Shown here: piece by piece, positions 13,028 through 53,263 of the stretch
Layout: every line of letters begins with the position of its first letter
Numbering within the stretch: the stretch's first letter is position 1
Source: Melampsora larici-populina 98AG31
Taxonomy: Eukaryota > Basidiomycota > Pucciniomycetes > Pucciniales > Melampsoraceae
Length of the DNA: 64,000 nt
Reading direction: 5' to 3'
Assembly (NCBI RefSeq): GCF_000204055.1
Contig: NW_006768787.1
Location: 736,309-800,308, forward strand
Notes under the pieces: model-generated
The model's input: the letters and a program-made list of their open reading frames with translations, nothing else
Database searches by the model: none
Told to the model about the DNA's origin: nothing
Translations under genes and position numbers: made by a program

Positions 13028-13955
13028 CACCGCCAAGAAATTTGCGTCGGAACGTCCATTCTGATGTCATATCGGGAACGGTGTTCCAAATCAGATTCGG
13101 GGCCGAGATGTGCGATACGGTTGATTTGCAATGTCAAACCGGATCTGAAAGACCCGACTGATTCCTCAGTCCGATCCAGACATGGTTTGGCACATCCGAT
13201 GAGACTCAGTTCCAATGTCGAAGTGGATGTATATCAACCGACTGAGCCTCAGTCCCTTGAGGCGCGATGGCTACTCGCAAAGTGCTCATCCGACTCAACC
13301 ATAGCTGCGATGAAACCCTCCCATCGCATACGTTTTGACCAACTAAAGATCGGCCATTTGGTCCCGATTCAATCCTCCCTGCGATTTCACTTCGGTGTTT
13401 CTGGTACGATCCAATCCCCTGTATACCTGATATAATCCCAGGTCCGAGCCAACGTTGGACCTGTGTACCCGATTTGATTCCAGCTTCCGAACCAACTTCG
13501 GTGTCGTCTTTGTGATCCAACCTCAGAGTACAATGGAAATCCCGTCGCCCAAACTCCTCATAAGTTTTTTTTTTGATTTACTTTGACGGAGATCGTGTAA
13601 ATTCAAGTAACCATGTATACATTTACTCGCTTGCTGTTAGTTGTCAACTTCCACTTTTAATTCGGTGCTATTCTCGAACACTAGAATCTCTCATGAGTAT
13701 TTGTGTTATTGATTGATTATGGTATTGTGGATGGTGTTTAACCACTTATGAAATTAGATTTAAAAAAATCAAAAAATAAGTTCGAGTTTACAAAGACTGA
13801 GAGCCTTCAGAGCTAGAAAACAATGATGAATAGAGGAAAGGGATTCTTTGTGAAATACGTACTGATCAGTACTTATTTCAAGACGCCTATCAAAAGGATT
13901 TGTGTTCTCCATATACTGCCTTCTAAATTCGCAACCTCAGGAAATACTAGAAGTT
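13028..13955. repeat. left terminal inverted repeat of giant element
   Basis: The first roughly 480 bp match the reverse complement of 53263-52785 almost base for base. A left-only stretch of about 110-150 bp near 13510-13655 interrupts, and the match then resumes to about 13955 (around the TTTGTGTTCTCCA and CTAAATTCGC blocks). Within it, ACCCGATTT/ACCGATATAAT and CCGAACCAA-type words recur. Open frames in this region are shadows of the repeat. Confidence 0.85.
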
Positions 13956-14005
13956 CGAACTTGAAGTTCGAACTTTGAACTTTGAACTTTGAACTTTGAA
14001 CTTCA
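13949..14005. repeat. left subterminal AAGTTCGAA array
   Basis: GAAGTTCGAACTTGAAGTTC followed by several GAACTTT units. Similar words lie at 52205-52335 next to the right terminal repeat and in many internal clusters. Confidence 0.7.
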
Positions 14006-14324
14006 GGCTAGGACGTCAACTTGGAAATCACGTCACTTTAAGCTTGAATTTCAAACTTCGAAGTTTGAATTAAGTTATACTCCACAAAATTTTGACAAGG
14101 TGATCAGCAAACTTATCATTCTCCATTCTCTCAGTCATTCTGAAGCTTGCTAATCTTAGAGAGCCTGAGATATTATCATATAGGGACGTGAGTGAGACAA
14201 AAAAGTACTTCATGGTACAAGAAAACAAATTATAAGAAGCACAAAAAAAACCTTGACACTATATGCAGAAAGACTGATAAATGAAGGGAAAACCAAGTGG
14301 TAAGAATTGATGTTGAAAAACATC

Positions 14325-15541
14325 TCATACATGAACCTTATCATGGATAATCTTCAATTTTTTTTCAACTTCCTGATGATAAGACTTCACTACCCTTTTC
14401 ACAAAATTCTTGTACTCTTCTTCAGTTTTTCCTGCTTTTGATTGTACTACCTTGCCAATACGCCTAGCAAGTTCCGCATTTATCTGACAGGACGAGCCAA
14501 ACAACGTGATTGTGGAGTTATGCGGCCTGATTTTTTTGCCAAATTTATTTGTTGTCGTGGATTCAGATGTGTAATGAGTCTCATCTGACGCCCATAGCAT
14601 AAGAATGTTTCCCTCGCAAGCACGAAGATCCGTTTCGACATGATAATACAACAATACGAATTTGGTACCGGTAATCTTCCCTAAGCTTGATTTCTCTTTA
14701 TGTTGAGGTTTTCCAGTTGCACGCCAAATTAAATTCCAGAGGCCACAGGCATAAGGGCTTACGTCATTATCTTCATGCGGCTTGTTCCAGAAACCATCTC
14801 TGGTGACTGAGATACTAGAAAAGAGAGCACCTGATTTTTCTTCCGACCATTCTTCATCTGCAAAAGACGGAATACAACACTGAGCTGAGATGAACTTGTT
14901 CGCTTTGAATGCGCCCATTGAGAGGCTCGACATCCATTCAGCATAATTATTATGACATTTAGCCATAGCTTTCATTTCATTTCTATCTTTGAAAATACTG
15001 GCTTCGTTGGCCCCATCCTTTGGATTGAAAGCGAAAACACCTAGCAAAGAAAACATTTGAATAAGCCACAAGAAAACCAAACAAGGTCATACGTAAGAAA
15101 ATCACCAAATGTTTTTCCCGGATCACTACCTGGCCTAGACCCGGCCAACCTCATCTCACCGCCTGCTTTGCAACCTTTCATCGCGCGATTGACCTTACAA
15201 GTTGCACGTCGAAGAGTGTGGATGTACACTGTTTTAGTTGTTGATTTGAATTTTTCACGCTGAGCAAACGGAGTGGTGTCATCCGGGAAGAACTGAATGA
15301 CTTGGATGACCTTCAAATTGTCTTGGTCAACGATGACAGTGGTTCCATGGCTGATAAGTTTTCGTTCAGTGGTAGGAAGCGTTTCGTCGGTATACTTTTG
15401 TAAGAAATATATATAGGCGTCTTCAGGTAACCCCATATTCTTTAATAAATCTTCGCGAAATTGTTTGAGTAGATGAGAGTTCGAATGCGGAGGTTGGCCT
15501 GGATGTGATCGATGTCGATTAGCAGACAAGCGTTTTGTCAT
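14325..15541 (-). CDS. TET/JBP-like 2OG-Fe(II) dioxygenase, about 375 aa
   Basis: Two exons, 15541-15130 and 15040-14325, join through a GTAGTG...TTGCTAG intron at 15041-15129 and keep the frame. ATG at 15541 gives a basic start MTKRLSANRHRSHPG. A conserved-looking block reads YAEWMSSLSMGAF, then SFADEEWS, then SVTRDGFWNKPHEDNDVSPY. The HxD iron-binding pair is in NKPHEDND; the distal His is probably in WASDETHYTSES; a final GSSCQINAELARRI block resembles the end of the domain. This pattern fits the basidiomycete Tet-like 2OG-Fe(II) oxygenases, which oxidise 5-methylcytosine or related bases in DNA. Such genes are known to be expanded in basidiomycetes and linked with DNA transposons of the KDZ type; here one rides in a Tnp2-bearing element. 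No internal stop is seen. A decayed relative lies at 59.9-61.5 kb. Confidence 0.75.
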
Positions 15542-16102
15542 CCTTGAATCAAAGTGGCAATAAGTCAAGGGTTTGCTTATAAGATTGTCAAATGATCGAA
15601 CAGAATAGAGTACTCGAGAAAGGCAGAGACGAAATTGAGAACTCAAGGATGAGAGAATACGCACTCAGCGCGAGCAAAAAAAACCAACACAATTGAATAG
15701 GTTACGAATGATGAGACATTTGGGTACTGAAACTTCATGCAGCATGACTCAAAAATCCCATCAATGGCTCTGGTATGTAGAGACCAACCATATTATATTG
15801 GCAAAATCCTAATAATGTCCCGTGCTGGACCCTTGAACTTCACAGTTCAAGTTCGAAATGCAAAGGTCAAGTTCGAACTTCAAAGCCTTGGGCTTAGAGT
15901 TCCTGCAGGTTGAAATTAAGCTTTGATGTCTATTGAGTTAATGCTATCTAATGAACAAGTGGATACACTTTTATAGAATGTTCGTGCAAAGATACAAGCA
16001 AATGCAAGACATATGAGATATAATAGTAAAGAAGATATATAAATTAAACCACAAGACCCAGAGTACTCTCATTTCAGTCTGTCTTTCAAATTTATTACTC
16101 AG
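15542..16102. other. intergenic stretch with AAGTTCGAA words
   Basis: Promoter side of the TET-like gene and 3' side of the next gene. A cluster of GTTCAAGTTCGAAAT-type words lies at about 15837-15885. Otherwise nothing recognised. Confidence 0.5.
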
Positions 16103-17419
16103 TCAATCAGTGACCCTCATGCTATCTTGTTGCTCGACGGGAACTCTTCCTAGTGAGATTTGATCAGATGATGGACTGGGAGATATGTAGGAAACGTGAC
16201 TACGTATGGCATCCAGCAGTATCAGGCACTGCATATCAACTTCATGGGTGCTCTTGGAGTTTTTCATGTGATCGACTATCGAGCTCTGGATATTTGCCCC
16301 GTTGACTTAATATCAGTACACGAAGTGAAATTTGATATCAGTGGGTACTCACAAGCCAGGAATTGATATTGTCCTGATACAGCTTTAAAAGAGGTCTTTT
16401 ATCATCCAAAAATATCGAGATCTCATGGGTTTGATTCAGAGTCCCTGTGATTGATTGTTGAATTTGATTAGTGACGCAACTTCTGGTTGATCCAAACGCT
16501 TTGATGATACGGCTGAATCTGAAGCTCTCAGTCAATCTCTTTTCCAACGCATATAGTTGGTATCTTGCATCCTGATTGGCTTTGTTTGCGGTATGTATTG
16601 TATCAAGAATACTTTCAATTGACCTCGTTAGGAGCTTCAATGAATCACGATGACGGTCAAGGATCCTTTTTGCGGTGTGCATGTCCCTTGCAGCTTCCTG
16701 CCGATTAAACCACAAGGCAAACTATATGATTGTTTCAGTCATTGAAAATCTGTCGAATTATTGGTTGGTTATCTTACTCACCTCACGCATAAAGATATCA
16801 AGCTCCATTTGTCCTTTACCATTGAGTTGGCGCATCATGTCGGAGACCAAATCAACGGCATCGGAAACTTTGACCAGCAGCCTCACAGCAGCGGATGACT
16901 CTGGATAGTCCGTAAAAGTATCCAAGACACCCAATAGTTCTCTTAGAGATAGCAAATCTATGGGTTTGAGAGCAACATCATTACTCAGAGACTTCATCGA
17001 TTCAATAAAGGTGACGGGGGTATATTGAGCCTTGTGAAGTTCTTTCAATTCTTGACCTGACTTCATTCGGTCTGTTGCCTCCTTCAGCTGGTCGACGTTT
17101 GTGGCTGATGAGCTTCTAAAAAATCATGACATATAACATTTGATGGTCAGCAATATTTAACAATGACAAATGAGTATGTATCAATATACCCCTGGAATAT
17201 ATACCAAGCCACGATTGTCAAAATAGCAGATAGCACTATAAATTGTATTTGGAAAGTGTGGTGCTTATGATGCAATGCATCATGATCAGGGGTGGGTTTG
17301 GTCGGAGAAGTGGAATCAGGCAAGTTGAATTTTGAATCGCCGGGCATTTCCTGACTAGATGCCAGCCAGTTTGGGTCCATGATTGATGAGGATGTATCGT
17401 AATTAGGTATCTCGGCCAT
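16103..17419 (-). CDS. single-pass membrane protein with long helical region (four exons)
   Basis: ATG at 17419 (MAEIPNYDTSSSIMD). Exon 1 carries a hydrophobic segment, residues about 64-82 (FIVLSAILTIVAWYIFQG), then a donor after FQG. Exon 2 begins near 17113 (SSSATNVDQLKEATDRMKSG), exon 3 near 16696 (EAARDMHTAKRILDRHRDSL), and a last short exon begins near 16288 (SSIVDHMKNSKSTHEVD) and stops at TGA 16103-16105. Introns have good GTGAGT/GTATAT donors. The layout is a short cytosolic N-terminus, one TM helix, then several hundred residues of amphipathic helices with leucine heptads. It is divergent from, and shares the same architecture with, the gene at 18205. I recall families of this look as basidiomycete proteins of unknown function. 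Not disrupted as far as can be seen. Confidence 0.65.
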
Positions 17420-18204
17420 GATATTTTGAGTCACAAGTAGACGGAATATTTAAAGAACCAGATGTTCGTTCCTATGTGTGATTTCTACGGTGTTCACTTT
17501 GAATTTTTGTAAGTTGGGGTATTGATGATCAGCGAAGTATGGGCCTGCCAATAAATATGTTGACTCTGGCTATGTCTTTGGTCAAAGATTCGCACCATTC
17601 TACGCAGGCTCTGAGGAGCAGCCCCAGAACCTCAGTGTCTTTGATGATAAGCCGTTTGTACGATTTAAGATGACAAACACGTTTCTCACTTCGAAAAGCA
17701 TACACAGATGTGTTATTACGTTGAGCTTGTGAGATGCGTACCTCGCTTAGAAAACAACTTAGCTTGCACTACGCGATTCAATTAAAACAGTTAAAACCCC
17801 GTTGCGTTGTTGCGTTGAGCCCTGTTGAGCCCGCGAGATGCGTATCCTGAGCCGGCTTGTCATCCAGACTTCCCGAAACTTCTGAAAATCTTTTAAGTCC
17901 TTTGTAGGATTTGAAATGACAGACGCATTTCCCTTTCTGCTGGGGACTGCCTACTTGCAACACTGAGACGCGACTGAGTTTTAACGCGTAGAGAGTCACA
18001 TGGACACTCAGAATCGCGGTCAAATCCACCTCACTCCTGCAACTACTCGCTCAAGTTAGAATCCTCACCGTCTCTCAACTCACTTGAAAATCACGCAATC
18101 TGATATACTAGTGGGTTTATTCTGATTCCTACACGTCTTGCTGAGATGAAGCTAGGGACTGACTCATCCAAATAACACAAATCACCTCCTACACTTTCAG
18201 GATA
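17420..18204. promoter_or_regulatory. shared divergent promoter region
   Basis: The 785 bp between two divergently transcribed membrane-protein genes. Two related blocks, about 17641-17745 and 17803-17935, share AGATGCGTA, GTTGAGC and ACGATTTAAGATGACAAAC-like segments in different order, a possible duplicated regulatory unit. No defined factor site can be assigned. Confidence 0.4.
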
Positions 18205-19419
18205 ATGACTCAATCAGCTGTTTCAAGGCACCTCCTCAGATGGGCTGTATTTGCTCTAGTAGTGGCAACGATTCCGGCTATCCCCAAAGCTATCCACCAA
18301 TACCTTGTCGGGAGTTTCAGGATCCAAGTCCCGACAGCTTCACACTTGTACTGTACCTATATTGGTGGCCCTTATTTTTGCGGATGCAAAGGCAATAGTT
18401 GCTCAAACAAGGTGGCTTCATTATCAAACAGCGTTACGTCTACTGCACGCTCTGCCGGAGATATTTTTGAATCAATCCTTGACCTTGGAAATCCTACTCA
18501 TGTCCGTCTTTACCAAGATGAGATACTGGAACTGTCCCAGGCCATCGCCGCTTCTGATATACCGGAAAAGAAAGACCACCTGGGCAAATGCGTTCGAAAT
18601 CTCACTGAGATGAACAGAAATGTGAGGGACAAGGTGAATCTCTTGAATGGTGCGAGCATCTCAGTCTTACGAAAGGTTTTTCAAAAGGTGAGATGTCATT
18701 TTTTTAAAAACTATTGATACGTTTCAAGGGCTGCCCAGCCAAAGCTGATACATAGTGACTTTCGGACACCCCAGCTTGAAGTGATCCGGCTTATTCTAAC
18801 TTCCATCGCCAACGGGGAAAACAAGTACTCGACTGTGTCAGCTCAGGTCAGATTAGAAGATCTGGTCCAGACCATCTCGGATGGGTTTTCTGGCATGCAA
18901 GCGCAGATAGATGCCACCATTCCCCTGGCCAGACAAGGTTCGGCTCTTGCGGCCGGTGTGGGCGCCCAGTTTGCATGAGGAAACATGCGACTAAGGAAGT
19001 TCAAGGCGGGTATCCCATTCTGGAAACGTCTCGTGAACTTTGGAAGCTGGGGAACTCAATTGCTTGCTAGCAATATTGCATTAACTTCAGCAAGTGCATT
19101 GACTTTACGGTCTATTGCCACAAAGCTTGAAGACCTGTGTGCAACTCTTGTGACCTTTCAGGGCAACGCCGAACATTTTCAAGTAAGTGTGTTGTATCTT
19201 GACTAAAAGCCTGATAAATGACATATGAAATTGGCTTTTTAGGCTGAAATCATAGGCAATCATATGGCTTCTCGGGAGCTAGCAATCGAAGACAAATTTC
19301 GGGCAATGAGCCAGGTGATCGGTCGTTTCAGTCAGCTCACCAAGACAGCTGCTTACAAGTCTAAACCAACTTGGATCAATCTGCCTACCATTGAAGGTGG
19401 ACAGCCATTCACTGTTTAA
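18205..19419 (+). pseudogene. membrane-anchored helical protein, partner of the divergent gene; one in-frame TGA
   Basis: ATG 18205. Residues about 12-30 (WAVFALVVATIPAIPKAI) form a hydrophobic anchor, followed by a Cys-containing stretch (YFCGCKGNSCSNK) and a long helical region (STARSAGDIFESILDLGNPT). Exons continue near 18730-18975 and 18979-19182, where the protein again has hydrophobic alanine/glycine runs, then a last exon near 19243-19419 ending GGQPFTV and TAA. TGA at 18976-18978 splits the third exon; the frame is open on both sides, so a single substitution (A-CGA-G to TGA) would explain it. The TM-then-helical-bundle plan matches the divergent neighbour, suggesting two halves of one membrane-associated assembly. 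Function unknown. Confidence 0.55.
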
Positions 19420-21690: not shown

Positions 21691-22582
21691 ATTTAAGAAG
21701 CGCTAAAATTGGTCATCTGAAGCAAAGACATCTGATTTTCCATCAAATATATGATAAACCCACCATACTTCCCACTTTGGGACATTTGTTTGAGTGATAG
21801 ACTTGTGTTGACGTGTTGGTTGTTTTGGCTTCCAGTGTACCGTTGTATGATCTCTTGGAGCGGGATGAAGTGGACGCGTTGCTTGATTCAATTCAAAGAG
21901 TCCTCGGATCGGGTGAAAAACTCATCTTGAACGTAATGGAGCCCAGGCCCAGAGTAAGCTGGTAACGTATCTATTTTCGCGATGATGATAGAGCAGGTGT
22001 TAGTGTATGCAATGTTGAGGCGGTAAGAGTTTGATGGGGTGGTGCAATTGAGATGTCACATCTAGGATACAAGTCAAACGCGCTCGTGAGGGGCTTAGTG
22101 AAGCTTACTCTGCGCGTGGAGCAAAGTAGTACAATTCAGGCCTCAATTGAGCTGGCCACTGACCAAAAGTCTCATTCCTTGGATCATCCCCCTTCATAAA
22201 CGCTCTTGAGAGCTCTGAGCGTTGATGCGTAACAAGCGTAACTGAGGTACTGAGGTACTGAGGTGATAAAGACTTGTAGAAGGTGACATCCTTCCAGTTC
22301 ACTTCTCGGCTGAGCCGCTTGCACACAAAGGCGCGTATGTCTTGGCTTTAAACCGGAAGACGTCTCATCATGAGCTACGCAGAATCATGATGGTTCAGTC
22401 TGGGAAACGGAGCTCACGAACTCAGCACGTCTGTCACGTTAATTGACGGTATATATATATCTGTCTACAACTTCAATGGTCAAAACATATCAAATCCAAC
22501 TTGTGACTTCTATTCCCTTCGTTCTCCACACTTCAAGCTCGACGAAGCCAATTTTTCATAATCAACTCAACAATCGTCTGTG
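21691..22582. other. divergent intergenic region
   Basis: Lies between the TPR-J gene (minus) and the SUN gene (plus), so it should hold both promoters. No repeat or further gene recognised; short open frames on the minus strand lack coding character. Confidence 0.45.
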
Positions 22583-23802
22583 ATGCCAAGCCTGGAGGTG
22601 TGCCATGAAATGAGGTTGGGCAAAGATGAACCTCTCAGTTTTGGTCGTAGCGCTGGGTTAAGAGCTAGGAGAGCTGTCACTGAAATTTCGCGACACGCCC
22701 CCTCGCTGCATGTTCTCTTGTTAATAATTCTTTCGCTAAGTCAGCACATTTCTTTGATTGGTCTTTGCATATACATGTTAGAGGCTTATTCGACTCATCT
22801 CATACAGCTACATGCGGGCGAATGCATCTTCTTGATCGACATATAAGGAAAGCGGAGGGTGATCTCCTGTCCATGCGAGTACGACTGACAGCTCAACCTT
22901 GCATCAGCATCTCAGCTTCTGTGGAAGGGCTTTGATACGTGCACGGCAACTTCGCCGATCATGGAGGAGCAGCATTCACGAGAGAGTTTCCCTACTACGC
23001 AGATGAAGCAACCAAAAATGTCAAGTTTGACGACCTACAACCCGGACAGGATGACACTTACTCCCACGCCGAGACGGATGAAGTTCACGTACCTATGGAT
23101 GGAAAGAAAACAACCGCTGAGGAGAATCAGGTAACAAATTGGGAAAGCACTCAGCTTGGACGAGTTACAGGCGATTGTCCTTCCTCAGAAGATTTGGAAT
23201 TAAAAACAACCTACATGGCACGCAAAGCTTTCACGCAGTGTACCAAGGACCGGGATGGGCCCAGAGACTTTGCGTTTCTGCACACCGGAGGCTCTGTGAT
23301 TCATTCCTTGACTTCGAACTCCTTTATTCAGTCTAACACGTGGAGACGGCACCTACCTTGGCCCCCAATGCTAGGCGTATTCAGCAAGCACACGACTTTA
23401 CCAGAGATCACACTGAAGGGTGATGGTTCAGTTGGAAACTGTTGGCCTCTGGTGGGATCATCAGGACAGCTAGGCATAGGTCTCAGTCGCAGCATCGACA
23501 TCACGGCCATGTCAATTGAGCACATCGGAACGCAATTAGCGCAAAACGACATCACCGCTGCACCTAGAGAATTCGAACTTTGGGGACTAAGTGATGACCA
23601 GAGTCAATTGCCGAGCGATACCCTTTTGTTCAAAGGAGTATACAGCATCTCCAGTCCCATTTCACCCTTACAAACCTTCGAAATCAAGAAACCACATCCT
23701 TTGCTTTATAAAAAAGTGCTGTTCAAAGTCATTTCAAATTACGGGAACTCTCAATTTACATGCATATATTGGGTGAGGATACACGGACAGCCAATTGATT
23801 GA
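22583..23802 (+). CDS. SUN-domain (Sad1/UNC-84) nuclear-envelope protein
   Basis: ATG 22583. A hydrophobic segment at residues about 42-68 (LLLIILSLSQHISLIGLCIY) is a plausible inner-nuclear-membrane helix. A shifted frame (LLDRHIRKAEGDLLSMRVRL) follows near 22830-22915, so an unseen junction or a frameshift joins it to the last exon. The last exon (about 22940-23802) carries a full SUN domain: DFAFLHTGGSVIHSLTS, GNCWPLVGSSGQLGIGLSRS, MSIEHIG, a PREFELWGL strand, and the closing FTCIYWVRIHGQP. SUN proteins sit in the inner nuclear membrane and bind KASH peptides in the perinuclear space to form LINC complexes, which move nuclei and tether telomeres or spindle poles. The SUN domain itself is uninterrupted. 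Neighbouring cargo includes a tail-anchored and coiled-coil proteins. Confidence 0.8.
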
Positions 23803-24776
23803 AAGCCAGCATGTATCTACCTTTACCAAAACATAACTTGGACTTTATTTATATATTTTCTAGTGAAATTTCTCATTCTTGTAATGTCTCTTAATCATTT
23901 CATTTCGTTTTTTTAATGTAGGATGAGAACTGCGTAGCGCGTGATACATTGAATCTTTTTTTATGTTGGGTAATAAAGACTGGATTTTTTCTTTGCTTTC
24001 TCCCTTTTTTTGCTACTCAGGGACATGTGCGTATAATCTCAAGTCCAATGGTTTTTTTCAAAAGCTATCAGCCCTTTAGAGCCACTAGGTCATTCATGCC
24101 TACAGATGCCTATACACAAAAGCCTACTAGCGCAACGCGTTTGCAACAACCCGCGCTCTGAACACGTTGAACTAAAGGTTCGATAACGAGAGCTTTGAAT
24201 ATGGCCCCTTTGAATATGTAACCTAATGAGAACAGAAGCAATATAAATATGCTTGAATATGATCACATCTAAAAGCAAAGGAGACAGAAGGAAATAAAGG
24301 GAAGGAGACGAGTCAAATCAATGAAGAAATCCACTCAACTCTTCTTAGGCTTCTGTAAAGTGTATTTTTGCTTGATAGTCTTCCTGTGAAGATACTTACA
24401 CCGATTGCATTGAATATATATGCGCCTCTCCTTCAGGTTGGAAAAGGGGGTGATATTTGACGTTTGGTTTGTAATCAACTGGATTAAAATGGTCAAAACA
24501 ATATACAAACAAATCATGTTGTTTAACTGTCAGCAACAAAGGATAGTCATTGTCCTTAGTCCGCACAATACCCAAGAGGTTGAGTAATCTTGGCTTGGGT
24601 CAAACCAACTGCAGTGCCGCTTTACATAACTCACCCAACTCCACACTCCGGAAAACTAATGATCCCAAACCTCAAACTCAAAGTCTGAACAATTCGAATA
24701 CACTCAACTTATCACCAAGCTCCCAAGCTGCCTCCCCTTGAAGACAATTGTACCAAAGGATTCTCATACCAAAATT
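23803..24776. other. intergenic stretch
   Basis: 3' flank of the SUN gene and upstream region of the next gene. Low-complexity T tracts near 23910 and 24000. A short open frame at 24550-24741 (Asn/Ser/Pro-rich) may be 5' coding or leader sequence of the following gene but has no clear join. Confidence 0.4.
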
Positions 24777-25802
24777 ATGTCGGCTCGTAAAGGAGGAAAC
24801 AACGTCGCTTACGAATGTCCCCATCTTCCTACATGTTTCAATCCTACCAGCAAAGGAAAACCTTGCCAAGACTGTAAGGGGTTGAACCTGACCGGAGTTC
24901 GTAAGCACACCCTCAACACCAGGCATCACGCGTATTGCGGCCCTGCTCGCCCAGTCTACGGGTGTGAGTGCCTCTGAGAACGATCTTGTCATCGTCATTA
25001 GTACTGACCCTCTGAATTGCCCGTAGTGACCGATCTGAGTGATGTCAAATTTGAAAGAAAGAGATGTCCAACACCAACACATTTACCTGTTGCATCTTCT
25101 GCCACTCTAAGCCGTACACCTTCAACCAAGCGATCTTCTTCACCCTCCTTACACGCAAGAGCCGCAACCCCTAACCCAAAGCCAACGTATTTACCTGTTG
25201 CATCTTCTGCCACTCTAAGCCGTACCCCTTCGACTGAGCGATCTTCTTCACCCTTACATGCAAGAGCCGCTACGCCCATCTGCCCACAAGAAAGCTCATA
25301 CGAGGTAGCATCACCTTCCGATAAGGAAGGGAGAGCCAATTTAAGTGTTTGACGACGCTCTGTTCGAGGCACTTCTACAAGTAATCCTTTCCGAAATGAC
25401 CTCTCCAGTATGGCTATCAATCCGGAGAAGTTTGACCTACACTCGCATCATCCCTTGCCGAATACCTTCTCCTCCACTCAGGAAATAAGTCAGGCTTCCA
25501 AAAATGCTCCGAATCCGTCTACATCCTCAATTCCCATTCCTGGCTCGCATCATGCCCAGTTGGACACCTGCTCTGATTACAACACAAGCACAGCCAACCA
25601 GCGCCATGTATCCTTTGACTCTCAAAACTTGAAAGAGGCAGAAGCGTTTACAAGTAAAACTCAAAAGCGAGCTCCTCCCATCCCGCTCACAAACGTCTGC
25701 TATGAGGAATCTTTTCGCCTTGATTGGAAGTTTGGTGCACTTTTGGCAGCAGCTGCCATCAATCTCTTCTGGTTCATCAGGGCATGGTTCGATGGCTTAT
25801 AA
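24777..25802 (+). pseudogene. Cys/His-rich N-terminus, disordered repeat region, C-terminal membrane anchor; one in-frame TGA
   Basis: ATG 24777 (MSARKGGNNVAYECPHLPTC). The N-terminal exon has seven Cys and several His in about 60 residues, suggesting zinc binding. A GTGAGT...CCCGTAG intron at 24964-25026 keeps the frame. The next part contains two in-frame tandem copies of a 108-bp unit (from 25081 and 25189; LPVASSATLSRTPST). A TGA at 25350-25352 interrupts, and the same frame continues through a Ser/Pro/His-rich region to a C-terminal hydrophobic helix (FGALLAAAAINLFWFIRAWF) ending four residues later, a tail-anchored topology. A KASH-like partner for the SUN protein is conceivable from topology, but the tail lacks a PPPX-type ending, so this is only a hypothesis. 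Confidence 0.55.
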
Positions 25803-26669: not shown

Positions 26670-27164
26670 TCATTGGAAGAAAACAAATACTATCATTAAA
26701 AATTTGTGCAATACCTCCAGGCAAAAAGACTCAGGTGCAGAAATTCTGAGCCAGGTCTTCAGACTTCCTTGACACGCAAAACACACGTTTCCCCATGCAC
26801 TTGGTAGAAATTCGGGAGTCCAGTGTTTCAGAGATTCTGAAAAACATCCTGTTGGATATTGACCAGCAAGCCATATAGCTACGATTGCCATGATATTGAG
26901 ATGGGTCAATATTGAACGAAATGCACTTCGCCATAGCATCACTGTGGGAATTTTTTGTAAGTAATAGGAACCAGCTTCATAAGTGAGAGTTAGACAACCC
27001 GTACCCTTCACATTCTTTGGAGGTCTTTCGGACATTTCAGATAATCTGAGGGTTGAGTTTTGATTGGTCTTGGGTTGTTGGACAACACGTCTCTTGTGAG
27101 TCGAAACTTTGGAAATGCAGCCATCGCATGGCAAGTGATAAGGACTTGACTTCCTGCTGGCCAT
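26670..27164 (-). CDS. small putative membrane protein
   Basis: ATG 27164 (MASRKSSPYHLPCDGC), open to 26670, about 164 aa unless spliced. A basic Cys-containing N-terminus is followed by hydrophobic stretches near residues 85-105 (LTHLNIMAIVAIWLAGQ) and at the end (KFLMIVFVFF). No family recognised. Splice sites could shorten the C-terminus. It is one of several small membrane proteins in the cargo region. Confidence 0.4.
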   Translation of the reverse strand: MASRKSSPYHLPCDGCISKVSTHKRRVVQQPKTNQNSTLRLSEMSERPPKNVKGTGCLTLTYEAGSYYLQKIPTVMLWRSAFRSILTHLNIMAIVAIWLAGQYPTGCFSESLKHWTPEFLPSAWGNVCFACQGSLKTWLRISAPESFCLEVLHKFLMIVFVFFQ

Positions 27165-28655
27165 TTCTTTCTGGATCAAACGATATAGTGGGGTTTGGGA
27201 GATAAAGTGATGTGTGAAGCTACTTTGGAGGAAGTCATACGAGGAAATTGATTCGGATGACGTGATGCGGAGACAAGCGTGTTCCTCGCACAGATGATAG
27301 GTATTTATGAGGAAAGGCTGTTTGAACCTCGTCTGAATACCATGTCAAACTTATAGATACTCAGTGGTTAAAAAGGCGCAATGCCATGAGTCCTCAGTAT
27401 TTGTTCCTGTCATGGGGACCCTTTCCTGATCGCAGTGCTCACGTTCAATCAGCTAAGCTTCGATGACCATGATCTTTGTGATGTTAGTTTCCTGAGGCAT
27501 TGGTTTCATTAGTCTTCCAAATGTTCTCCAAAAAACCTCGAATTTCATGTATGTGATGGTCATGAACAAAATCAGCAAAGTTTAAGAAAAGGCTCACTAC
27601 GCTTTTTTCACCCGCTGAAGAAGCCTAAGCTCCCCTACGCTATACGCGACGGGAGCTTTTGTCTACACGGTGAGTCTTTATGACCCGCGTGAGAACAAAA
27701 AGCTCTGTGTAACAGAAGCTACGCTTTTGTGACCCAATAAGGGCCCTACGCTCATTGCATGTCGTCTCTTTTGTACCGCGTAGACAACCTTTGAGATCCG
27801 GAAGAATGACCCGCGTAGAAACCAAAAGCTCTGTGTAAAGGAAACTACAGCTTTCTGAAAATATCATTTCACTTTGAATGTGCATACTAGACCCCGGAGG
27901 TTTGAAGTAGGAACATTCCTACTTCAAAGTGACATATCAGACTTCCCAGATTCGAAGTGGGATGGAGTCAAGCTGGTTTGTACCAGCCTGCGTTAAGTTC
28001 CTGAAGCTTGGCGTTTTTTCTCACTACCTCTTGGTGGGCTTATGTAAGCCCCTGTGCGTAATGGATCATCGGCTATGTCCACACTGCCGTCTGCGTATTG
28101 TGGAATGTTTCTGCTGTGCTGGTACTGCATTACCCTATTCACGACGGGTGACCTATCGGGGCCAGTGTTGACAGTGATCCACTCAGCAACTACAATCCGA
28201 TAAATTCGAAGGCCTCAGTCCCACTCCCGCTCAGAAGTTTACTTTCTTTTTTGGATCTCTTTGTTGATAGAGTTCCTTTGATGTCAGTGCCTCAAGAATG
28301 ATAAAGACTTTCTAACCTCAGGACATTGTCTATAACTCAGGATACGGAGTTACGTTGTCCTGGGTGAGCCAAAGAAATCCTGAGCTACGGGTTGAGCAAG
28401 CGAAGTTTGAACGTTACAGTAATACGATAATGGAAAGGGCTGTGACTCTATATAAGGATTTTATTCTTTCTTGGTGGGTGCTTCTGTTTCCCAGCATCAT
28501 AGACTAGCCATCGCTTCCAAATCATCAAGCTACTTTCTCACAATCTTCACCTATAGCCAAAATAACCCCACACCCCACTTTTTCTTCTAGTTCGCGTCTC
28601 ATAAGCTATACCTATACTAAGAGCATTTTGTCCAGGAAACGCGCTTCGAGGAGTC
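27165..28655. other. intergenic region carrying direct repeat A (copy 1)
   Basis: About 27777-27935 and 28060-28210 match 36541-36692 and 36720-36870 in the same orientation (blocks TGACCCGCGTAG, ACCAAAAGCT, GCCGTCTGCGTATYGTGGAA, CAATCCGATAAATTC). The copies are diverged. The open frame at 27929-28171 lies in this repeat and is not supported as a gene. Confidence 0.6.
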
Positions 28656-39068: not shown

Positions 39069-41573
39069 GTTTTAATTTCCCCCCCTTCATTAGCTTAGAT
39101 AGGACTTCTGTCTTCTATTTTTTATGCCTATGCCTGATCATACTCTACATTCATTCGGGCCAAGATAGCCTGTCTTGTTGAACTCTGAATGCGTAAAGAT
39201 TTCGAAGCGGCTGTACCTATACTTTTTTCCCTGGTGGAAAGCTAGTTCAAGATATAAAATAGTAGTTTATGTTCATATTAGATGAGGTTCCGAGAGATGC
39301 TATGAGGTAGGAGTTACGACACGGTCATATCTATGCTGTTTTCCAAGTTTTGATATGGTCATACCTATGCTTTTTTATCTCGTGTATATCTATCTGGGTT
39401 CAGTTATAAAATAGTTTTTTGTAGTAGATGAGGTTTAAGGAATACTATGATGTAAAGGTTTCAATTTGGTTCTACATATGCTTGTTTTCTTGTGTATGTC
39501 TGGGTCAAGCTAGAAGATACATAGCTCTCACCGGTGATAGCTCTTTCCATCCTGATGATAAGTAGACCCTGCTGAGCTGTGAAAGGAGAGGAAATGATCT
39601 CACCCCAGTTGTCTTAAGACCGTATAGGGCCAGATTTCTCTTTCTGGAAGATGTACATACAGCCTCAAGTTTGTGCCATGCAGAGAAAATTCTTGAGAGT
39701 GGATTTCCATGGATTTGGATCTTGCTTGGATGAGGCAGTGATGAGTTGGAAAAGGTTACATTCCAATTCACCCCAAACAAACATGAGTTGTAACTGGATT
39801 TAAGTCCACTCATTCAACAGTGGTTTATCCACAGATCCGCCCACATGATGGCGCATAAAATACACCTCACTTTGACCCTTATCACGTAATCTACGTATCA
39901 GCAAGGAAAAGCAAGCAGTGGGCATGGAAAGTGCTGACTTGAGATGAAGGGCCTGAATTTTCCTCCATCTCAAGTCAATAGTGCAAGACCGTCGTATCTT
40001 ATAGATGTGAATGTGGGTTAAGCTTTGTTGAACAACGTGGCATTTGAAGAATAAAGAAATTTCATTCTCAATATGGTTCAATTTGAACTACATATTTTTC
40101 ATTTATTTGCATCTTAACTTGTATGTATTCTTTTTGTTGTGTGTCTTTCCAAATATATTGGCTGCCTGTTTTATTTAAGCAGTACGTACTAGTTTACTTG
40201 ACACCACATCCTAACAGGAGAAATACTCAACATAAGCCTGATTGTATTAAAGAACTGGAATCGGTTTTGGCTCTTTGGCTCTTTTGCTTTGGTCAAAATT
40301 CTTCAAATAAAATTATAACACACAACAACTTCTGGAGTCTGAAATAATTTGTGACCTATAGACATGAGATAGAAATAAATTTGGTAAACCCTTGCGCCCT
40401 ATGGGGTTGCACTACAACCAAATATAATCCTAATGAGAGTGACGGTGGGGAAATAAAACTTTCTTAATACTACTAAGTATGACAGTATAACTAATTTTTT
40501 GTTGAGAAAGAAATGTATAAATCTAACAAAACAGATATTAGATGATGAAAGTTAGGATACAAAAAAGAGACATGATTATAACTCGCCCATAAGATAACTG
40601 ATCAGAGAAGGTACAAGTGTATCAAAAGAAGGACTACCAATAATATACAACCACTATTGGTTGGATTTGCCTCTTCCAGTGATGCCAACACATAAAACAA
40701 CACGACAACCATACAATGGATGATAGATTCTGTGAATACATTAAAACTGAAATCAGCAGACGGCCTTGTCTTGAAAGATATCTGTGATACATACTAATGT
40801 GCAAACGGGCTTGGTGGACCTCAACACGCTGGTAGATATAAATTTGTTTCGCCTTCGAATCGAAGGCGATAAAGATATCTGGTCTCTGCCACGGTGTGAT
40901 TGTGTGACCTTGTTGTTTCGCGTCTGTTGTTTTTTTGATGGTCGGCTTTACCGACAGTATCCTGTGCGTATGTTTTTGGTCATTCTGAGGAGAGCTGACC
41001 CATGGGTGGGATTTCTTTTGTTCTACGACGGACATGGTGAAAGAAGTTCTGCCTGGCACTGATTCAAAGGAGGATGCTGGAACTTGAAGCACCTACGCAA
41101 CAAGGTCCTTAAGTAATATGTAAACAACTGGGACAACTGGGACGCCTCAGTCGCAAGGAACACTCAGACTTGCTCATGGAAACGGCTTCGAGCGGCTTGC
41201 GTTACAGTCCTAAGGGCTAAGTAGTAACTCAACCCTCAAAACTACTGAGACTCAGCACATATCCTCCCTTGAAAACTAGAGGTACTTCACGTAGTAAGCA
41301 GCTTTTGTGGTCTGGAGACTTTTCATTGATCAGCAATTTTTCGAAAGTGTTATACTCATGATGGCGCCTTTGTGATCTTCAGCATTTCTTCATCCTCGAA
41401 ATAGTCGTTTTCTTCTGAGGATGCGTAGCTCAGATGCGTATTTCATTTCAACGGGCTGCATGTCACCCTATCAATCTTCGTACATATATCGAACACTTCT
41501 CCACTTCAAGTCACATTAGGAGTATTCATCGACTCATCGAGCCTTATCACCCAAGAGCGTAAAGGATTGCAAG
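39069..41573. other. gene-poor region upstream of the Tnp2 gene
   Basis: Minus-strand open frames at 39505-40081 and 40634-41090 exist but lack splice-consistent structure or recognised motifs. A local direct repeat (GGTCATAYCTATGCTKTTTT type, 39200-39490) is present. CACTA-like ends for a separate small Tnp2 element were looked for here and not found. Confidence 0.4.
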
Positions 41574-44500
41574 ATGCGAATGCCGACCTTGATACCCTGC
41601 CACTGTACCGACTGTCAAAAAAACGCCTACCAACATCCCCAGACAAATGACCAAGTATACGGAACACTCTGGAGACCGGCAAATCACAAAAAACATGTCA
41701 AAGGCTTTGCCACACGAATCACCCACACGACCCAAAAAGCCTCTTTGTCCTTCGATATCTCAGGTGTGTAGACCTTTCCCTTATTAAATTCTTAATTTTT
41801 GTCTACTTCAGAGTCTGAGAGCACAGATTTGACAGATACACAATCACCATCACAAGATCCCCAAAAGTCTTCGACAGAGAGTTCGCCGCTTCCTTCTTCA
41901 GACTTACATACAACGCCTACCAATTTTAAAGTCACAGAAAGCCACTTTCAACCATCATGGGACGGGCCAATAATAGATTCAAGCTTGTTTCCTCTTCTGG
42001 TCTTGAATTGGGGTTTTATATTGATTTTTGTTGAAGTGTTGATTTTCTGACAAGCAGGCATCTACAGTCCAACATACTACGACACATTTCGACGTTGGAA
42101 GCCTTCTGACCTCGCTTACTTCCTTATGATCACATGTTTACACATCATCAAAAACATCAGTGTCAAGGCGGCCACGATTTGCTTGCATGTCATAGGCGTA
42201 GTCTCCAGCTTCAACACTGATAGAACGTCTTCGCATATCAATTTACCTAAGACTATGAGTACGTGCCTCGATGGACTAAGAATCGAACCCAAGATCCGTA
42301 GAACAGTGTGCTGTCCGAAATGCTTCAAGCTGTACTACGAGGATAATATCCCGAAGTTTTGCACGTATCAAGCTACTCCTAGAAGCCGTGTATGTTCAGA
42401 GCCGCTTCCAAACAAGCCAGGTGATCAAGATGGGACAACCACGAAACCATGTCGGCTCTTTTCAACCGTATCTTCTACTGACTGGTTAGCTCGCTTTTTG
42501 AATCGACCTGGGATCGAGGACTTGCTGGAATGGAACGATGATAATTGGGAAACACGAGGCCCAATGATGAAGGATGTGCGGGATGCTTCAATGTGGCACT
42601 TGCTTTGTGGGGAAGATGGCAAGCGATTTACTTTGTCCCCCGGGAATCTGGTTTTCGCTTTAAATGTGGATTGGTTTAATCCAGATGGAAACAAGGCTGC
42701 ATCAAAACAAATCTCTCTGGGGACTATTGCTATGATTTGCTTGAATCTGCCACCAGAGATTCGTTCCTCTCAAGAGAACATATTTTTGGTGGGCTTGACC
42801 CCTGGTCCTTCCGAACCAAATGTAGATCAAATTAACCATGTGCTGGCGCCTCTAGTCCACAAACTCAAGGCCCTATGGAAGGGTGTCAAGCTTTCTTTGA
42901 CAGCCAAGTATCCTAGTCATGGAAGAATTGTCCGTGCAATGCTAGGTCCCATCATCTGTGATCTTCCCGCAATACGAAAGGTTTTGGGAATGGCAGGCCA
43001 TTCATCGAACCGGCATCTGTGCTCGCTGTGTCTACTTGGAAAGGACGAAATACATTTATTACGGATTCCGAAAGAACTACAAAGGTGCACACATACACTC
43101 CGCGAACAGGCTTTGAGGTGGAGAGATGCAAAAACAATACAAGAACGCAATGACATATTTGCTGAATACGGCGTGCGGTACTCTGTCTTATGGGAGCTTC
43201 CGTATTTTGATCCTCTTAGACACACCATTGTAGAGCCGATGCACAATGTCTTCCTTGGTATTCTCAAAAACCATGGGACGAGGGCCTTTGGCATGAAGTC
43301 TGACCCAGAATCTCCTGAAGATCAGAAGAACGCGGATGCTAGCGAAGTAGTAGAATTGGATACGGAGTCGGTAGCCTCAGACATCTATATGGAAGAGGGC
43401 TTCGATAACGCAGCATCAGCAACCCCAGGACCAGAAATGGGATCCTCATCTCCACCGCCAACTCCAAGACATCTATCAGCAGAGAGCAATGACAAATTGT
43501 TGTCTGCCTTCGAAGACATGAACTTAGGAAACCAATCTTGTCCTGCGACATCACCCACGGATGATCAAGCCACGCAAGAGCAGACAGCAATCTCTTCAGA
43601 AGATGAAGAATTGGATGAAGACTTTTCTGACTGTGAAGATGCTTGTGACGACGAACTTGGTTGGAAGCTTTTTGATGATGCTCAAAACCTAGCTACGTTG
43701 CAAGATATCACAAAAAATATACGCCTTCCTTCCTGGGTTGGACGTGTGCCTAGCACTGTGGGTACACGGAAGGGTGGAAAATTGAAGGCCGATGAGTGGG
43801 TGATTCTCTACCAAGTCATGATGATTCCTGCAATAATTTCTGTCTTGCACAAGGACGGCAATGCTACAAAATTTACAGATCACAACTTCGTGCGCAATGT
43901 CCTACATCTTATAAGTGTATTGAACATTGTTTGGAGATTGGAAGTGACTGAACGCAATATCAGATCCCTTCAATACCACCTGCGAAGCTATCAAAATGGA
44001 TATTCTAAACTTTACACTTCACTTTCTGTCCTACCTAATCATCACATGGCACTGCATCTCCCCGAATGCATTCAACGGTTTGGGCCCACACCATGCTGGA
44101 GTGCATGGTTGTTCGAGAGACTTAATGGCAAACTAGCTAAAATTCCAAATAATAATCATCCTAGTAAGTTTATAAGATCAATCAACTGACAGATTTTGAC
44201 TGAACTGACGAAAGTATGGTAGATTCACGCGAATTGACAAGACTCAGGAAGTTTACCCTAGAGCAAAACCTGCGGCCAGTTGTGAAAATTATATGTGAAG
44301 CTCTTCCAACAGACATTGCTGCGAGTATCTTGGAGTTATTGCAGCCCAGTGGGACGCCACGAGGTAGCACCTCTGGATACAAGGCCCAAACGGGCATTCC
44401 TGTACACGCTGAGCTCGTCTATGACTACAATGAAAAGAAAGCAGAGACCTTGGACTACGACACTCATGAAAATCTTGCACGCCGTATGAAAGAGCTGGGA

Positions 44501-45010
44501 TGCGGGGATGTTGTTGTGGCTAGTCGAATTTACAAAACACCACTGCCTCCATCACATCTGATATTGCTAGGACGTATGGTGAACCAAAGAAAAACGGTCA
44601 AACATGGCGACATATTCTACTCAACCTGGGATCATCACCAGGGAAATAGCATTGTTATGTATGAGTCTAAAGATCTATGCCGTCCAATGAAGTATCGGTG
44701 GGGACAAATCAATGAGATATTTGTCACAAGCCCTGGGTCACAAGGACATCCGAAGGCGCAGTTATGGTTTGAAATTCTCCGATTCTCCAAGCTGAGAGCT
44801 TCTGAGAAAGCAAAGCATGGTCTTGACAATTGGCAAAATGCCAGAATGACTGTCTTGTACACCTCTTCCAAAAAAAAGGATCTGGTCCAAGTTGATGAGC
44901 TTGTGGCTCAAGGGGTAGCTTGGGATACCCCAGAAGGATGCTTTGGAATCAAGCAGCCAACCACCCTGATTATAAATATGAGCAAGTTTTTTTGCGAGGA
45001 AACTCTCTGA
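41574..45010 (+). pseudogene. Tnp2-type (CACTA/EnSpm, Transposase_21) transposase; one in-frame TGA
   Basis: ATG 41574 begins with a short Cys motif (CHCTDCQKN) common at the N-terminus of basidiomycete Tnp2 proteins. Small introns (about 41764-41811 and near 42013-42057) lead to a long exon 42058-44163. Key blocks: CPKCFKLYY, FALNVDWFNPDGNKA (first catalytic Asp region), LPPEIRSSQENIFLVGLTPG, DLPAIRKVLGMAGHSSNRHL with CSLCLLG, and EPMHNVFLGILKNHG. An acidic insert (43320-43670) separates this from GKLKADEWVILYQVMMIPAI. After a GTAAGT...CTGACAG intron (44164-44192) the frame meets TGA at 44201-44203, then runs open to 45010. The protein should excise and insert the giant element. Apart from the one TGA it looks complete. 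Confidence 0.8.
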
Positions 45011-51465: not shown

Positions 51466-52200
51466 ATTGGATTTTCAATTTACTTCTTGTTTTCAAAAAA
51501 ATACTCCTTAACTTTTTTCGAAATATCTACTAACTTGATTTCAAAAACGACTTGTTTTCCAAAAAAATATCTACCAACTTGTTTTCAAAAAATGACTTGT
51601 TGTTCAAAAAAAAATTATTTACTTGTTTTCAAAAAGTCTACTGACTTGATTTCAAAAAAGACTTATTTTCGAAAAAAAAATTACTTGTTTTCAAAAAGAA
51701 ATTCTACTTGTTTACAAAAAAATCTAATTACCTGTTTTTTAAAAATTGTTAGCGGTGTTGGTGTCATCTTTGCGTTTTGAATTTTATCAAATATCGAAAT
51801 CAAATCCCTCAACACTGTCCAAGGTATTTTTTTGTGCTTCTTGTCATTTGTTTCCTCGTACCATCAGGTACTTTTTGGTCTCACTTTTTCAATGAGTAAA
51901 TCTACTTATCTTCAAGAAAGAAATTCTAATTGTTTGCAAAAATAGTCTAATTACTTGTTTTTAAAAAAATGTTGGTGGTTCGTCTATTGGTGTCGTATTT
52001 GTGTTTTTTATCCTGTCGAATTTCAAAATCCAAGGTTTTTTGTGCTTCTTATGATTTGTCTTCTCGTACCATCAGGTACTTTTTTTGTCTCACTCGCGCC
52101 ACCACATTAGAATTTCTCAGGCTCTTTAACACAAGCAAGCTTTAAAATGACTGTGAGAACGCAGAATGACAAGTTTGTTTGTCCCCTTGTCAAAATTTTG
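51466..52200. repeat. low-complexity tract
   Basis: Degenerate units of the type TACTTGTTTTCAAAAAA repeat from about 51485 to 51975. A TCGTACCATCAGGTACTTTT segment occurs twice (51857 and 52063), so part of the tract is a direct duplication. No gene. Confidence 0.65.
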
Positions 52201-52204
52201 CGGA

Positions 52205-52335
52205 GCATAACTTATTTCAAACTTCAAAATTTTGATGTTCGAACTTGAAGTTGAACCTCGAAGTTCGAAGTTTGAAGTTCAAAGCTCAAGTGCAAGTTCA
52301 AACTTCGAGTCCATTCTGGTAGTTCAAAGTTTGGA
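52205..52335. repeat. right subterminal AAGTTCGAA array
   Basis: Words such as GTTCGAACTTGAAGTTG and CGAAGTTCGAAGTTTGAAG cluster just inside the right terminal repeat, mirroring 13949-14005. Confidence 0.7.
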
Positions 52336-52489
52336 GCTTTGGTTTTTATAGTGTAGGTATGAGGGACGCAATGAGTGCACGAGAGTCCATTTACCGCACT
52401 GCTATGACAAACTCGCCAGCGGAGGATTTGCTACCTCAAATTTATTCACAGACCATGTGAATGATCAAAGGAAATCCTTACGCAAGAGT

Positions 52490-53263
52490 CCTAGAACTAG
52501 GCACCACATATTTCCTGAGGTCGCGAATTTAGAAGGCAATATTTGGAGAACACAAATCCTTTCAATAGGTGTCTTTTCCCCCGACCATCTCCTCAGTACT
52601 GATTTCACAAAGACTCCCTTTCCTCTATTCACCATTCTTTTCTAATTCTGAAGACTCTCAGTCTTTGTAAACTCGGACTTATTTTTTGATTTTTTTAAAT
52701 CTAATTTTATAAGTGGTTAAATACCGTCCAAAAGAGATTCTAGTGTTCGAGAATAGCACCGAATTAAAAGAGAGAGTGCAAAGACAACACCAAAGTTGGT
52801 TCGGAAGCTGGAATTAAATCGGGTACGCAGGTCCGAATTTGGTTCGGACCTGGGATTATATCGGGTACACAGGGGATTGGATCGTACCAGAAACACCGAA
52901 GTGAAATCCCCGGGAGGATTGAATCGGGACCAAATGGCCGATCTTTAGTTGGTCAAAAAGTATGCGATGGGATGGTTTCATCGCAGCTATGGTTGAGTCG
53001 GATGAGCACTTTGCGAGTAGCCATCGCGCCTCAAGGGACTGAGGCTCAGTCGGTTGATATACATCCACTTCGACATTGCAACTGAGTCTCATCGGATGTG
53101 CCAAACCGTGTCTGGATTGGACTGAGGAATCAGTCGGGTCTTTCAGATCCGGTTTGACATTGCAAATCAACCGTATCGCACATCTCGGCCCCAAATCTGA
53201 TTTGGAACACCGTTCCCAATATGACATCAGAATGGACGTTCCGACGCGAATTTCTTGGCGGTG
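52490..53263. repeat. right terminal inverted repeat of giant element
   Basis: Reverse complement of 13028-13955, shorter by the left-only stretch. The outer roughly 480 bp are nearly identical to the left copy. The open frames on both strands here are repeat shadows. Confidence 0.85.

What the first reader, a model, noticed from the sequence alone, without database searches (positions are those of the whole stretch)
13028..53263. A 40-kb cargo-carrying CACTA/EnSpm-like transposon
Seen: long inverted repeats beginning CACCGCC with a sharp boundary on both sides, TGT flanking each end, subterminal word arrays inside both ends, and a Tnp2-type transposase within. Known: CACTA elements make 3-bp duplications and encode Tnp2. 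Inference: one mobile unit carrying a dozen or more non-transposition genes, conceptually like Starships of Pezizomycotina but with a DDE-type Tnp2 enzyme in a rust fungus.
Basis: partly seen in the sequence, partly recalled or inferred. Interest (0 to 1): 0.97.

Follow-up and report, generated by a model that had tools for sequence, protein, structure and literature searches.

The report
Giant rust transposon encoding SUN protein
A 40,000-letter stretch of the poplar rust genome is a giant jumping gene that carries, besides its own predicted cut-and-paste enzyme, about a dozen further genes shared by the rest of its family, among them a DNA-demethylase-like enzyme and a nuclear-envelope (SUN) protein that likely serve the element rather than the fungus.

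Summary
Confirmed and extended. Window 13028-53263 is a 40,236-bp DNA transposon of the poplar rust Melampsora larici-populina: 485-bp inverted repeats (96%), TGT on both sides, a Tnp2 (PF02992) transposase, and an uninterrupted target elsewhere (290/300 bases, gapless, TGT once) in a sibling Harbinger copy. It belongs to a family: its terminal 15-mer occurs 35 times (reversed control 0), and 14 of 18 possible end pairs share an exact 3-bp duplication (5000 shuffles: mean 5.3, maximum 11). Two other copies, 97% alike over about 50 kb, sit at different sites, each with its own duplication. The 'cargo' is not random: twelve gene units besides the transposase recur in other copies (two are missing in one of the three read in full), dN/dS is below 0.7 in the ten tested, and marker genes cluster genome-wide beside related Tnp2 genes. 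Units include a TET/JBP-type dioxygenase (far more diverged, so probably swapped), a SUN-domain protein and several membrane proteins. Boldest reading: a transposon that encodes its own nuclear-envelope bridge. Four of seven same-contig end pairs do not match in their duplications; at least two look like mis-joins or recombinants. Closest known: TET+ EnSpm elements of Puccinia striiformis. It is not a Starship.

The parts
13028..13512 (+). left terminal inverted repeat, starts CACCGCCAAGAAATT
   Evidence: I1; genome copies
52779..53263 (-). right terminal inverted repeat
   Evidence: (I1), 96% complementary to the left one
13025..13027 (.). target duplication TGT, left copy
   Evidence: single TGT in the uninterrupted site
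53264..53266 (.). target duplication TGT, right copy
11463..13027 (+). left part of the interrupted Harbinger-type target (DDE_Tnp_4 ORF 11711-12475)
   Evidence: 97% match to the sibling copy on C14; PF13359 E 1.5e-6
14328..15664 (-). TET/JBP-type 2OG-Fe(II) dioxygenase gene, two ORF pieces
   Evidence: PF20515 E 7.3e-28; H-x-D and distal H kept in 4 of 4 copies; dS saturated
16106..17449 (-). G2, N-terminal hydrophobic helix plus helical body
   Evidence: shared with E3 and E4, absent from E2; hydropathy
18163..19413 (+). G3, N-terminal hydrophobic helix
   Evidence: shared with E3 and E4, absent from E2; 15 loci in the genome
20588..21892 (-). G4, TPR-like with J-domain motif HPDKGG
   Evidence: PF14559 0.0038 and PF00226 0.0002, both below cut-off; motif in 3 of 3 copies
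22568..23799 (+). G5, SUN-domain protein with N-terminal hydrophobic helix
   Evidence: PF07738 E 3.2e-27; M. americana relative matches human SUN2 at 6.5e-26
24669..25799 (+). G6, C-terminal hydrophobic helix and short tail; other copies hold two
26673..27344 (-). G7, hydrophobic membrane-type protein
28893..32340 (+). G8/G9, 747-aa protein MELLADRAFT_87865 (P0128), no Pfam family
33339..34853 (+). G10, charged helical protein with C-terminal hydrophobic helix and short tail
   Evidence: 8 of 8 genome hits at element-type loci
35504..35866 (-). G11, hydrophobic membrane-type protein
37971..38917 (-). G12, unknown
41520..45007 (+). Tnp2-type DDE transposase, several exons (longest ORF 42051-44186)
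   Evidence: PF02992; D207, D304, C324/C327, H665/H669, E689; 108 rows in the genome
49559..51462 (+). G14, unknown; a diverged second piece at 46050-47325 (-)

Best explanation
Window 13028-53263 is a 40,236-bp DNA transposon of the CACTA/EnSpm kind that sits in a Harbinger-type element of the poplar rust Melampsora larici-populina with a 3-bp TGT duplication, and its Tnp2-type DDE transposase is predicted to move it as one unit together with about a dozen family-wide genes that likely serve the element itself. Shown: paired termini, exact 3-bp duplications across the family, uninterrupted targets, near-identical 50-kb copies at different places, and conservation of the gene set with dN/dS below 1. 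Inferred: the transposase recognises the long inverted repeats, cuts both ends and pastes the unit at a 3-bp staggered target. Inferred: the TET/JBP-type enzyme would lift cytosine-methylation silencing from the element. Inferred and least certain: the SUN protein with tail-anchored membrane partners would form a bridge across the nuclear envelope that holds the element, or the breaks it makes, at the nuclear edge and so steers repair or silencing in its favour.
For: 485-bp inverted repeats and TGT on both sides. Uninterrupted target 290/300, gapless. 35 exact terminal 15-mers, reversed control 0. 14 of 18 possible end pairs share a 3-bp duplication; shuffles mean 5.28, maximum 11 of 5000. Uninterrupted targets also for E3 (28 rows), C80/C14 (99%) and C61/C54 (seven long rows). 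E2 and E3 97.4% identical at different sites. Twelve units besides the transposase shared with E2-E4. dN/dS 0.12-0.67. SUN 14 of 21, G9 14 of 16 and G3 13 of 15 loci lie within 80 kb of a Tnp2 of at least 50% identity, against 0.72, 0.55 and 0.51 expected. Transposase motifs. SUN domain.
Against: Four of the seven same-contig end pairs have unequal duplications (C11, C10; C44 and C1 by one base), so part of the family is mis-joined or recombined. For four of nine sites searched no uninterrupted target was found (E2, C11/C48, C92/C5, C44/C15, where only the 40 best candidates were scored). Seven of 21 SUN loci lie away from a close Tnp2. No KASH family match, no binding, localisation or transposition data. 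Both structure models were poor. No long reads.
Confidence: 0.78

Rival explanations
1. A Starship-like cargo carrier: a transposon that happened to enclose host genes, which now travel passively and change from copy to copy.
For: Large size and many genes that are not needed for transposition. Copies do differ in part: E2 lacks G2 and G3, and TET differs between E1 and the others.
Against: The same units recur in copies that are about 25% diverged in DNA, with dN/dS below 0.7 and dS near that of the transposase, and cluster with Tnp2 at far more divergent loci. No DUF3435 captain family among 38 ORFs scanned.
Confidence: 0.1
2. Not one unit: two separate small elements or a segmental inverted duplication whose ends happen to face each other, or an assembly mis-join.
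For: Same-contig pairs with unequal duplications exist (C11, C10, C44, C1), and 10 of 36 termini lie within 7 kb of a known contig end, two more on loci cut short.
Against: For this copy the duplication matches, the window has no N, and the joined flanks match an uninterrupted site over 300 bases. E2 and E3 share about 50 kb at 97% between the same ends.
Confidence: 0.05
3. A transposon with its own accessory genes, in which the SUN and membrane proteins act elsewhere than in an envelope bridge, for example in membrane signalling or as unrelated helpers.
For: No KASH family match was found; the unknown membrane proteins have no Pfam family.
Against: The SUN domain is well conserved and complete, preceded by a hydrophobic helix in 4 of 4 copies, and two partners end in a hydrophobic helix plus a short tail.
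Confidence: 0.5
4. An endogenous large DNA virus or virus-like element.
For: Long inverted repeats and a conserved set of many genes.
Against: No polymerase, capsid or packaging ATPase family among 38 ORFs scanned; a Tnp2 and a 3-bp duplication instead. Short exons were only partly scanned.
Confidence: 0.02

Closest known systems
TET+ EnSpm (CACTA) families of Puccinia striiformis (Kojima 2025, PMC12730594; abstract, section 3.1, first part of the Discussion and figure legends read)
   Same: CAC...GTG termini, 3-bp duplications, EnSpm-like transposase, a TET/JBP dioxygenase gene
   Different: No SUN gene and no dozen-gene set is mentioned in what I read; element lengths are not given there; in M. 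larici-populina that section names TET+ Dileera and IS3EU, not EnSpm
Enlarged En/Spm of Chondrus crispus, 16-20 kb with 4-5 ORFs (as cited in the review PMC6431247, passages seen)
   Same: CACTA type grown beyond the usual one or two ORFs
   Different: Here 40-75 kb and about a dozen conserved units, in a fungus
Starships (PMC12134995, passages seen; eight also reported in the basidiomycete Tremella fuciformis, PMC13066641, passages seen)
   Same: Giant cut-and-paste fungal elements with many genes, sometimes nested in other transposons
   Different: Tyrosine-recombinase captain (DUF3435) instead of DDE Tnp2; variable cargo instead of a shared set
LINC (SUN-KASH) complexes; host example fission-yeast Kms1 in repair of repeats at the nuclear edge (PMC12632457, outline and abstract seen)
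   Same: A complete SUN domain behind a hydrophobic helix
   Different: Encoded by a transposon; the KASH-like partner is only proposed

Membership tests
CACTA/EnSpm (CMCT clade) | 5'-CAC...GTG-3' termini with inverted repeats | tested here: met
   CACCGCC...GGCGGTG, 485-bp repeats
CACTA/EnSpm (CMCT clade) | 3-bp target duplication | tested here: met
   TGT here; 14 of 18 pairs in the family
[quoted passage not shown]
   D207, D304, C324-C327, H665-H669, E689 invariant or nearly so in 24 aligned proteins; signature as given in PMC12730594; PF02992
CACTA/EnSpm (CMCT clade) | subterminal repeats | tested here: inconclusive
   modest in E1, strong in E3; no shuffle control
Starship | DUF3435 tyrosine-recombinase captain at one end | tested here: not met
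   none among 38 ORFs scanned; Tnp2 instead
Starship | variable cargo | tested here: not met
   shared set in four copies and clustering genome-wide
TET/JBP dioxygenase | 2OG-Fe(II) domain with H-x-D...H site | tested here: met
   PF20515 7.3e-28; residues in 4 of 4 copies
SUN-domain proteins | C-terminal SUN domain behind a transmembrane helix | tested here: met
   PF07738; SUN2 match 6.5e-26 for P0121; hydrophobic helix in 4 of 4 copies by hydropathy
LINC complex | a KASH partner that binds the SUN protein across the envelope | not testable with these tools
   G6 and G10 have a C-terminal hydrophobic helix and short tail, but no KASH family match and no binding test

The most novel reading that the evidence does not exclude
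A giant CACTA transposon encodes its own nuclear-envelope bridge, a SUN protein with tail-anchored KASH-like partners, plus a TET-type demethylase, and uses them to pull its DNA or its transposition breaks to the nuclear edge so that repair restores the donor copy and silencing is lifted: a selfish element that brings its own LINC complex.
Probability: 0.3. Interest if true: 0.93.

Novelty: new variant of a known kind. Interest (0 to 1): 0.82.

Why it matters
Giant gene-rich transposons of fungi are known mainly as Starships with tyrosine recombinases. Here a DDE cut-and-paste family of 40-75 kb keeps about a dozen accessory genes under constraint in an obligate plant parasite that lives with two nuclei per cell. 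It would show that ordinary CACTA transposons can grow into complex, self-equipped elements, and it makes one question directly testable: can a transposon use nuclear-envelope machinery for its own spread? It also shows where this assembly breaks or mis-joins: 10 of 36 termini lie within 7 kb of a known contig end, and two more on loci cut short.

Tried and rejected
Structure prediction of the 747-aa core protein P0128 (mean pLDDT 44.2) and of the SUN relative P0121 (41.5) gave poor models; no fold search was run on them. Pfam on unknown core genes gave only hits below the curated cut-offs (for example SPO22 0.0039, TPR_19 0.0038, Mis12 0.0095, Fib_alpha 0.0012, PA_decarbox 0.0016); I give them no weight, apart from noting TPR and the J-domain motif in G4.

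I considered counting the C11, C44, C10 and C1 pairs as complete elements. Their duplications differ (C44 and C1 by one base only). For C11 and C10 both ends match ends on other contigs; for C44 one end does; for C1 one end does. I therefore treat C11 and C10 as probable mis-joins or recombinants and leave C44 and C1 open. E4 (C11) was still used for gene comparison.

Literature: searches for a giant CACTA, or a SUN-carrying transposon, in rusts listed none that I recognised; one search listed 15 of 127 papers, and only the open-licence library was searched. In one search class B (ATG/CAT) can be paired within or across contigs with the same count; E3's uninterrupted targets favour within. Two-base triplet control gave 5 pairs.

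Rows dropped before counts: L003 (degenerate terminus at C11:430604) and L054 (C42:332525, matches the 15-mer, then diverges) were left out of the 36 termini. In one search, five secondary rows of G9 and one of G3 were left out, and only 28 of the 108 transposase rows were entered, 21 of them at 50% or more. The Spearman figures include E1 itself. In one search the sent query was ten bases shorter at its end than the six pairs printed; the seventh pair (C120/C11) was not sent because its flank is another element's terminus. G7 and G12 were not in the dN/dS count.
Full report
WHAT AND WHERE. The window is G000:C23:736309-800308 of a 98.3-Mb assembly in 243 contigs. Public proteins that match it are MELLADRAFT_107438 and MELLADRAFT_87865 of Melampsora larici-populina 98AG31, on a contig of the same length as C23, 1,231,822 bases. 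The organism is thus the poplar rust.

The inverted repeats at 13028-13512 and 52779-53263 are 485 nt long and 96% complementary. Both begin CACCGCCAAGAAATT and both are bordered by TGT. The window has no N. The terminal 15 bases occur 35 times in the genome, 17 forward and 18 reverse; the pattern read backwards occurs 0 times. A 23-base version with up to 3 mismatches gives 41 places, control 0.

UNINTERRUPTED TARGET. Joining 150 bases of each flank, with TGT once, gave one full-length close match, C14:1156360-1156659: 290 of 300 identical, no gap, no mismatch in the 30 bases on the left and the 40 bases on the right of the junction. Two more rows match 271 bases of the query at 71-73%. On the left the 97% match reaches window position 11463, inside which lies a DDE_Tnp_4 (PF13359) ORF.

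A FAMILY WITH 3-BP DUPLICATIONS. The first 480 bp match 37 places, all from base 1, which I sorted into five similarity classes. Seven pairs of ends face each other on one contig, spanning 40.2, 75.6, 50.7, 51.5, 43.3, 40.5 and 55.6 kb. Three have matching duplications: E1 TGT, E2 on C52 ATG, E3 on C23:64085-114746 CAT. Four do not: C11 AGA/TTT, C10 CCT/AGT, and, by one base, C44 AAT/ACT and C1 ATA/ATT. Ten of 36 termini lie within 7 kb of a known contig end and two more on loci cut short, so I asked whether ends on different contigs match. Over 36 termini, 14 of 18 possible within-class pairs share an exact 3-bp duplication; 5000 shuffles gave a mean of 5.28 and a maximum of 11; 4, 5 and 6 bases gave 0 pairs, 2 bases gave 5, and triplets displaced by 1, 2, 3 or 6 bases gave 1, 1, 0 and 3. 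In class E all five pairs join one end of a 100% type with one of a 92-95% type (chance 0.066).

MORE TARGETS. For six cross-contig pairs the joined flanks were searched (40 of 148 candidates scored): C80/C14 matches C31 over 239 bases at 99%; C61/C54 has seven uninterrupted copies of at least 220 bases at 77-84%; C3/C68 has two partial ones; three pairs have none. E3's joined flanks match 28 uninterrupted copies at 79-88% (two read base by base); E2's match none. The C11 and C10 same-contig pairs are therefore probably mis-joins, or products of recombination, between near-identical copies; C44 and C1 stay open.

MOVED AS ONE UNIT. E2 and E3 are 97.4% identical over segments that add up to 53 kb; 84% of E3 is covered by E2 at 90% or more; yet they sit at different places with different duplications. 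E1 is more distant: 43% of its length aligns with E2-E4, in segments of 72-83%. As a control, the window's flanks give two short matches to E2 (98 and 126 bases) and none to E3 or E4.

GENE SET. Besides the transposase, twelve conserved units lie along the whole element: a TET/JBP-type dioxygenase, G2, G3, G4 (TPR-like, HPDKGG), the SUN protein G5, G6, G7, the 747-aa G8/G9, G10, G11, G12 and G14. E2 lacks G2 and G3 and has only part of G4. Blocks are inverted and reordered between copies. dN/dS against E2-E4, by simple Nei-Gojobori counting on best ORFs, was measured for the transposase and ten of the twelve units: transposase 0.13-0.22, SUN 0.26-0.29, G9 0.12-0.26, G2 0.16-0.21, G3 0.18, G8 0.34-0.40, G11 0.29-0.37, G14 0.37-0.44, G10 0.48-0.52, G4 0.19-0.67, G6 0.17-0.67. 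dS is 0.41-1.19 for these, 0.52-0.58 for the transposase, but 2.7-3.1 (near saturation) for TET, whose dN/dS of 0.25-0.29 is thus uncertain. TET in E1 is of another lineage than TET in E2-E4, in line with the exchange of TET genes among transposons reported by Kojima (PMC12730594, sections read).

TIED TO THE TRANSPOSON. In this genome 14 of 21 SUN loci, 14 of 16 G9 loci and 13 of 15 G3 loci lie within 80 kb of a Tnp2 at least 50% identical to this one; 0.72, 0.55 and 0.51 would be expected from the length of genome covered. Identity to E1 falls in parallel (Spearman 0.87, 0.92, 0.82; E1 itself included). Against: seven SUN loci lie elsewhere, among them C19 and C2 at 34-35%, perhaps the host's own; a C18 cluster has SUN, G9 and G10 but no close Tnp2; six of the 21 Tnp2 hits have none of the three genes near, at least two of them (C52:2745, C86:1) at a contig start. 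All 8 G10 hits lie at such loci, one being C18. Several copies carry in-frame stops, so not all are intact.

TRANSPOSASE. PF02992. In 24 aligned proteins D207, D304, C324/C327, H665/H669 and E689 are invariant or nearly so, which fits the signature given in PMC12730594. The best named relative outside Melampsora is from P. striiformis, 46%. The homologues found for SUN and G9 with a species name are all from Melampsora; the searches reach only relatives that share exact words.

SUN AND MEMBRANE PROTEINS. The SUN domain scores 3.2e-27; residues 163-362 of the M. americana relative P0121 align with human SUN2 at 6.5e-26. A hydrophobic helix precedes it in 4 of 4 copies. G6 and G10 end in a hydrophobic helix and a short tail (7 of 7 and 4 of 4 ORFs); G7 and G11 are hydrophobic in 4 of 4; G2 and G3 have an N-terminal hydrophobic helix in 3 of 3 (Kyte-Doolittle only). 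That is what a SUN protein with tail-anchored partners would look like, but no KASH family was found and no binding was tested.

HOW IT LIKELY WORKS. Shown: termini, duplications, targets, shared genes under constraint. Inferred from the family: cut-and-paste by Tnp2. Inferred from the literature: TET against methylation silencing; PMC12730594 says that this function is not experimentally validated. Least supported: an envelope bridge of SUN and tail-anchored proteins that steers repair of transposition breaks; host LINC parts do affect repair of repeats at the nuclear edge in fission yeast (PMC12632457, abstract).

NOVELTY. By the membership tests it is CACTA/EnSpm and not a Starship. What sets it apart from the CACTA elements in the passages I saw is its size and a large shared accessory set that includes SUN. 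Searches for such an element in print listed none that I recognised in the library held.

Noticed in passing
window 6207 to 64000 and 272 bases beyond (L063): An outer CACTA-like element: ends CACCTCCGGC / GCCGGCGGTG, 472 of 500 terminal bases alike, TAG on both sides, 58,066 bp with E1 and the Harbinger-type element nested in it.
   Followed up: partly
window 60039-60560 (-): A second TET-like 2OG-Fe(II) ORF (PF20515 E 3.1e-20) inside the outer element; it lacks the D of H-x-D in the alignment.
   Followed up: partly
window 1202-2092 (+): A 297-aa ORF without a Pfam family, 37% identical to an ORF inside E3 and one inside E4 that E1 does not have.
   Followed up: no
G000:C120:68922 and 69022 (L008): One class of terminus lies 100 bp inside a terminus of another class: one giant element inserted in another's end.
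   Followed up: no
G000 loci on C3, C30, C9, C67, C6, C4, C46: Tnp2 at 51-53% identity with core genes nearby but without the CACCGCCAAGAAATT ends: a more distant branch whose termini were not found.
   Followed up: partly
window 32741-33133 and 37317-37710: A direct repeat inside E1 (300 nt at 98%, then 74 nt at 88%) of unknown nature.
   Followed up: no
G000:C5:2131609, C16:396534, C24:147889: Three ends reading CACCGCCAACATATTCACCTCGG, perhaps another related family.
   Followed up: no
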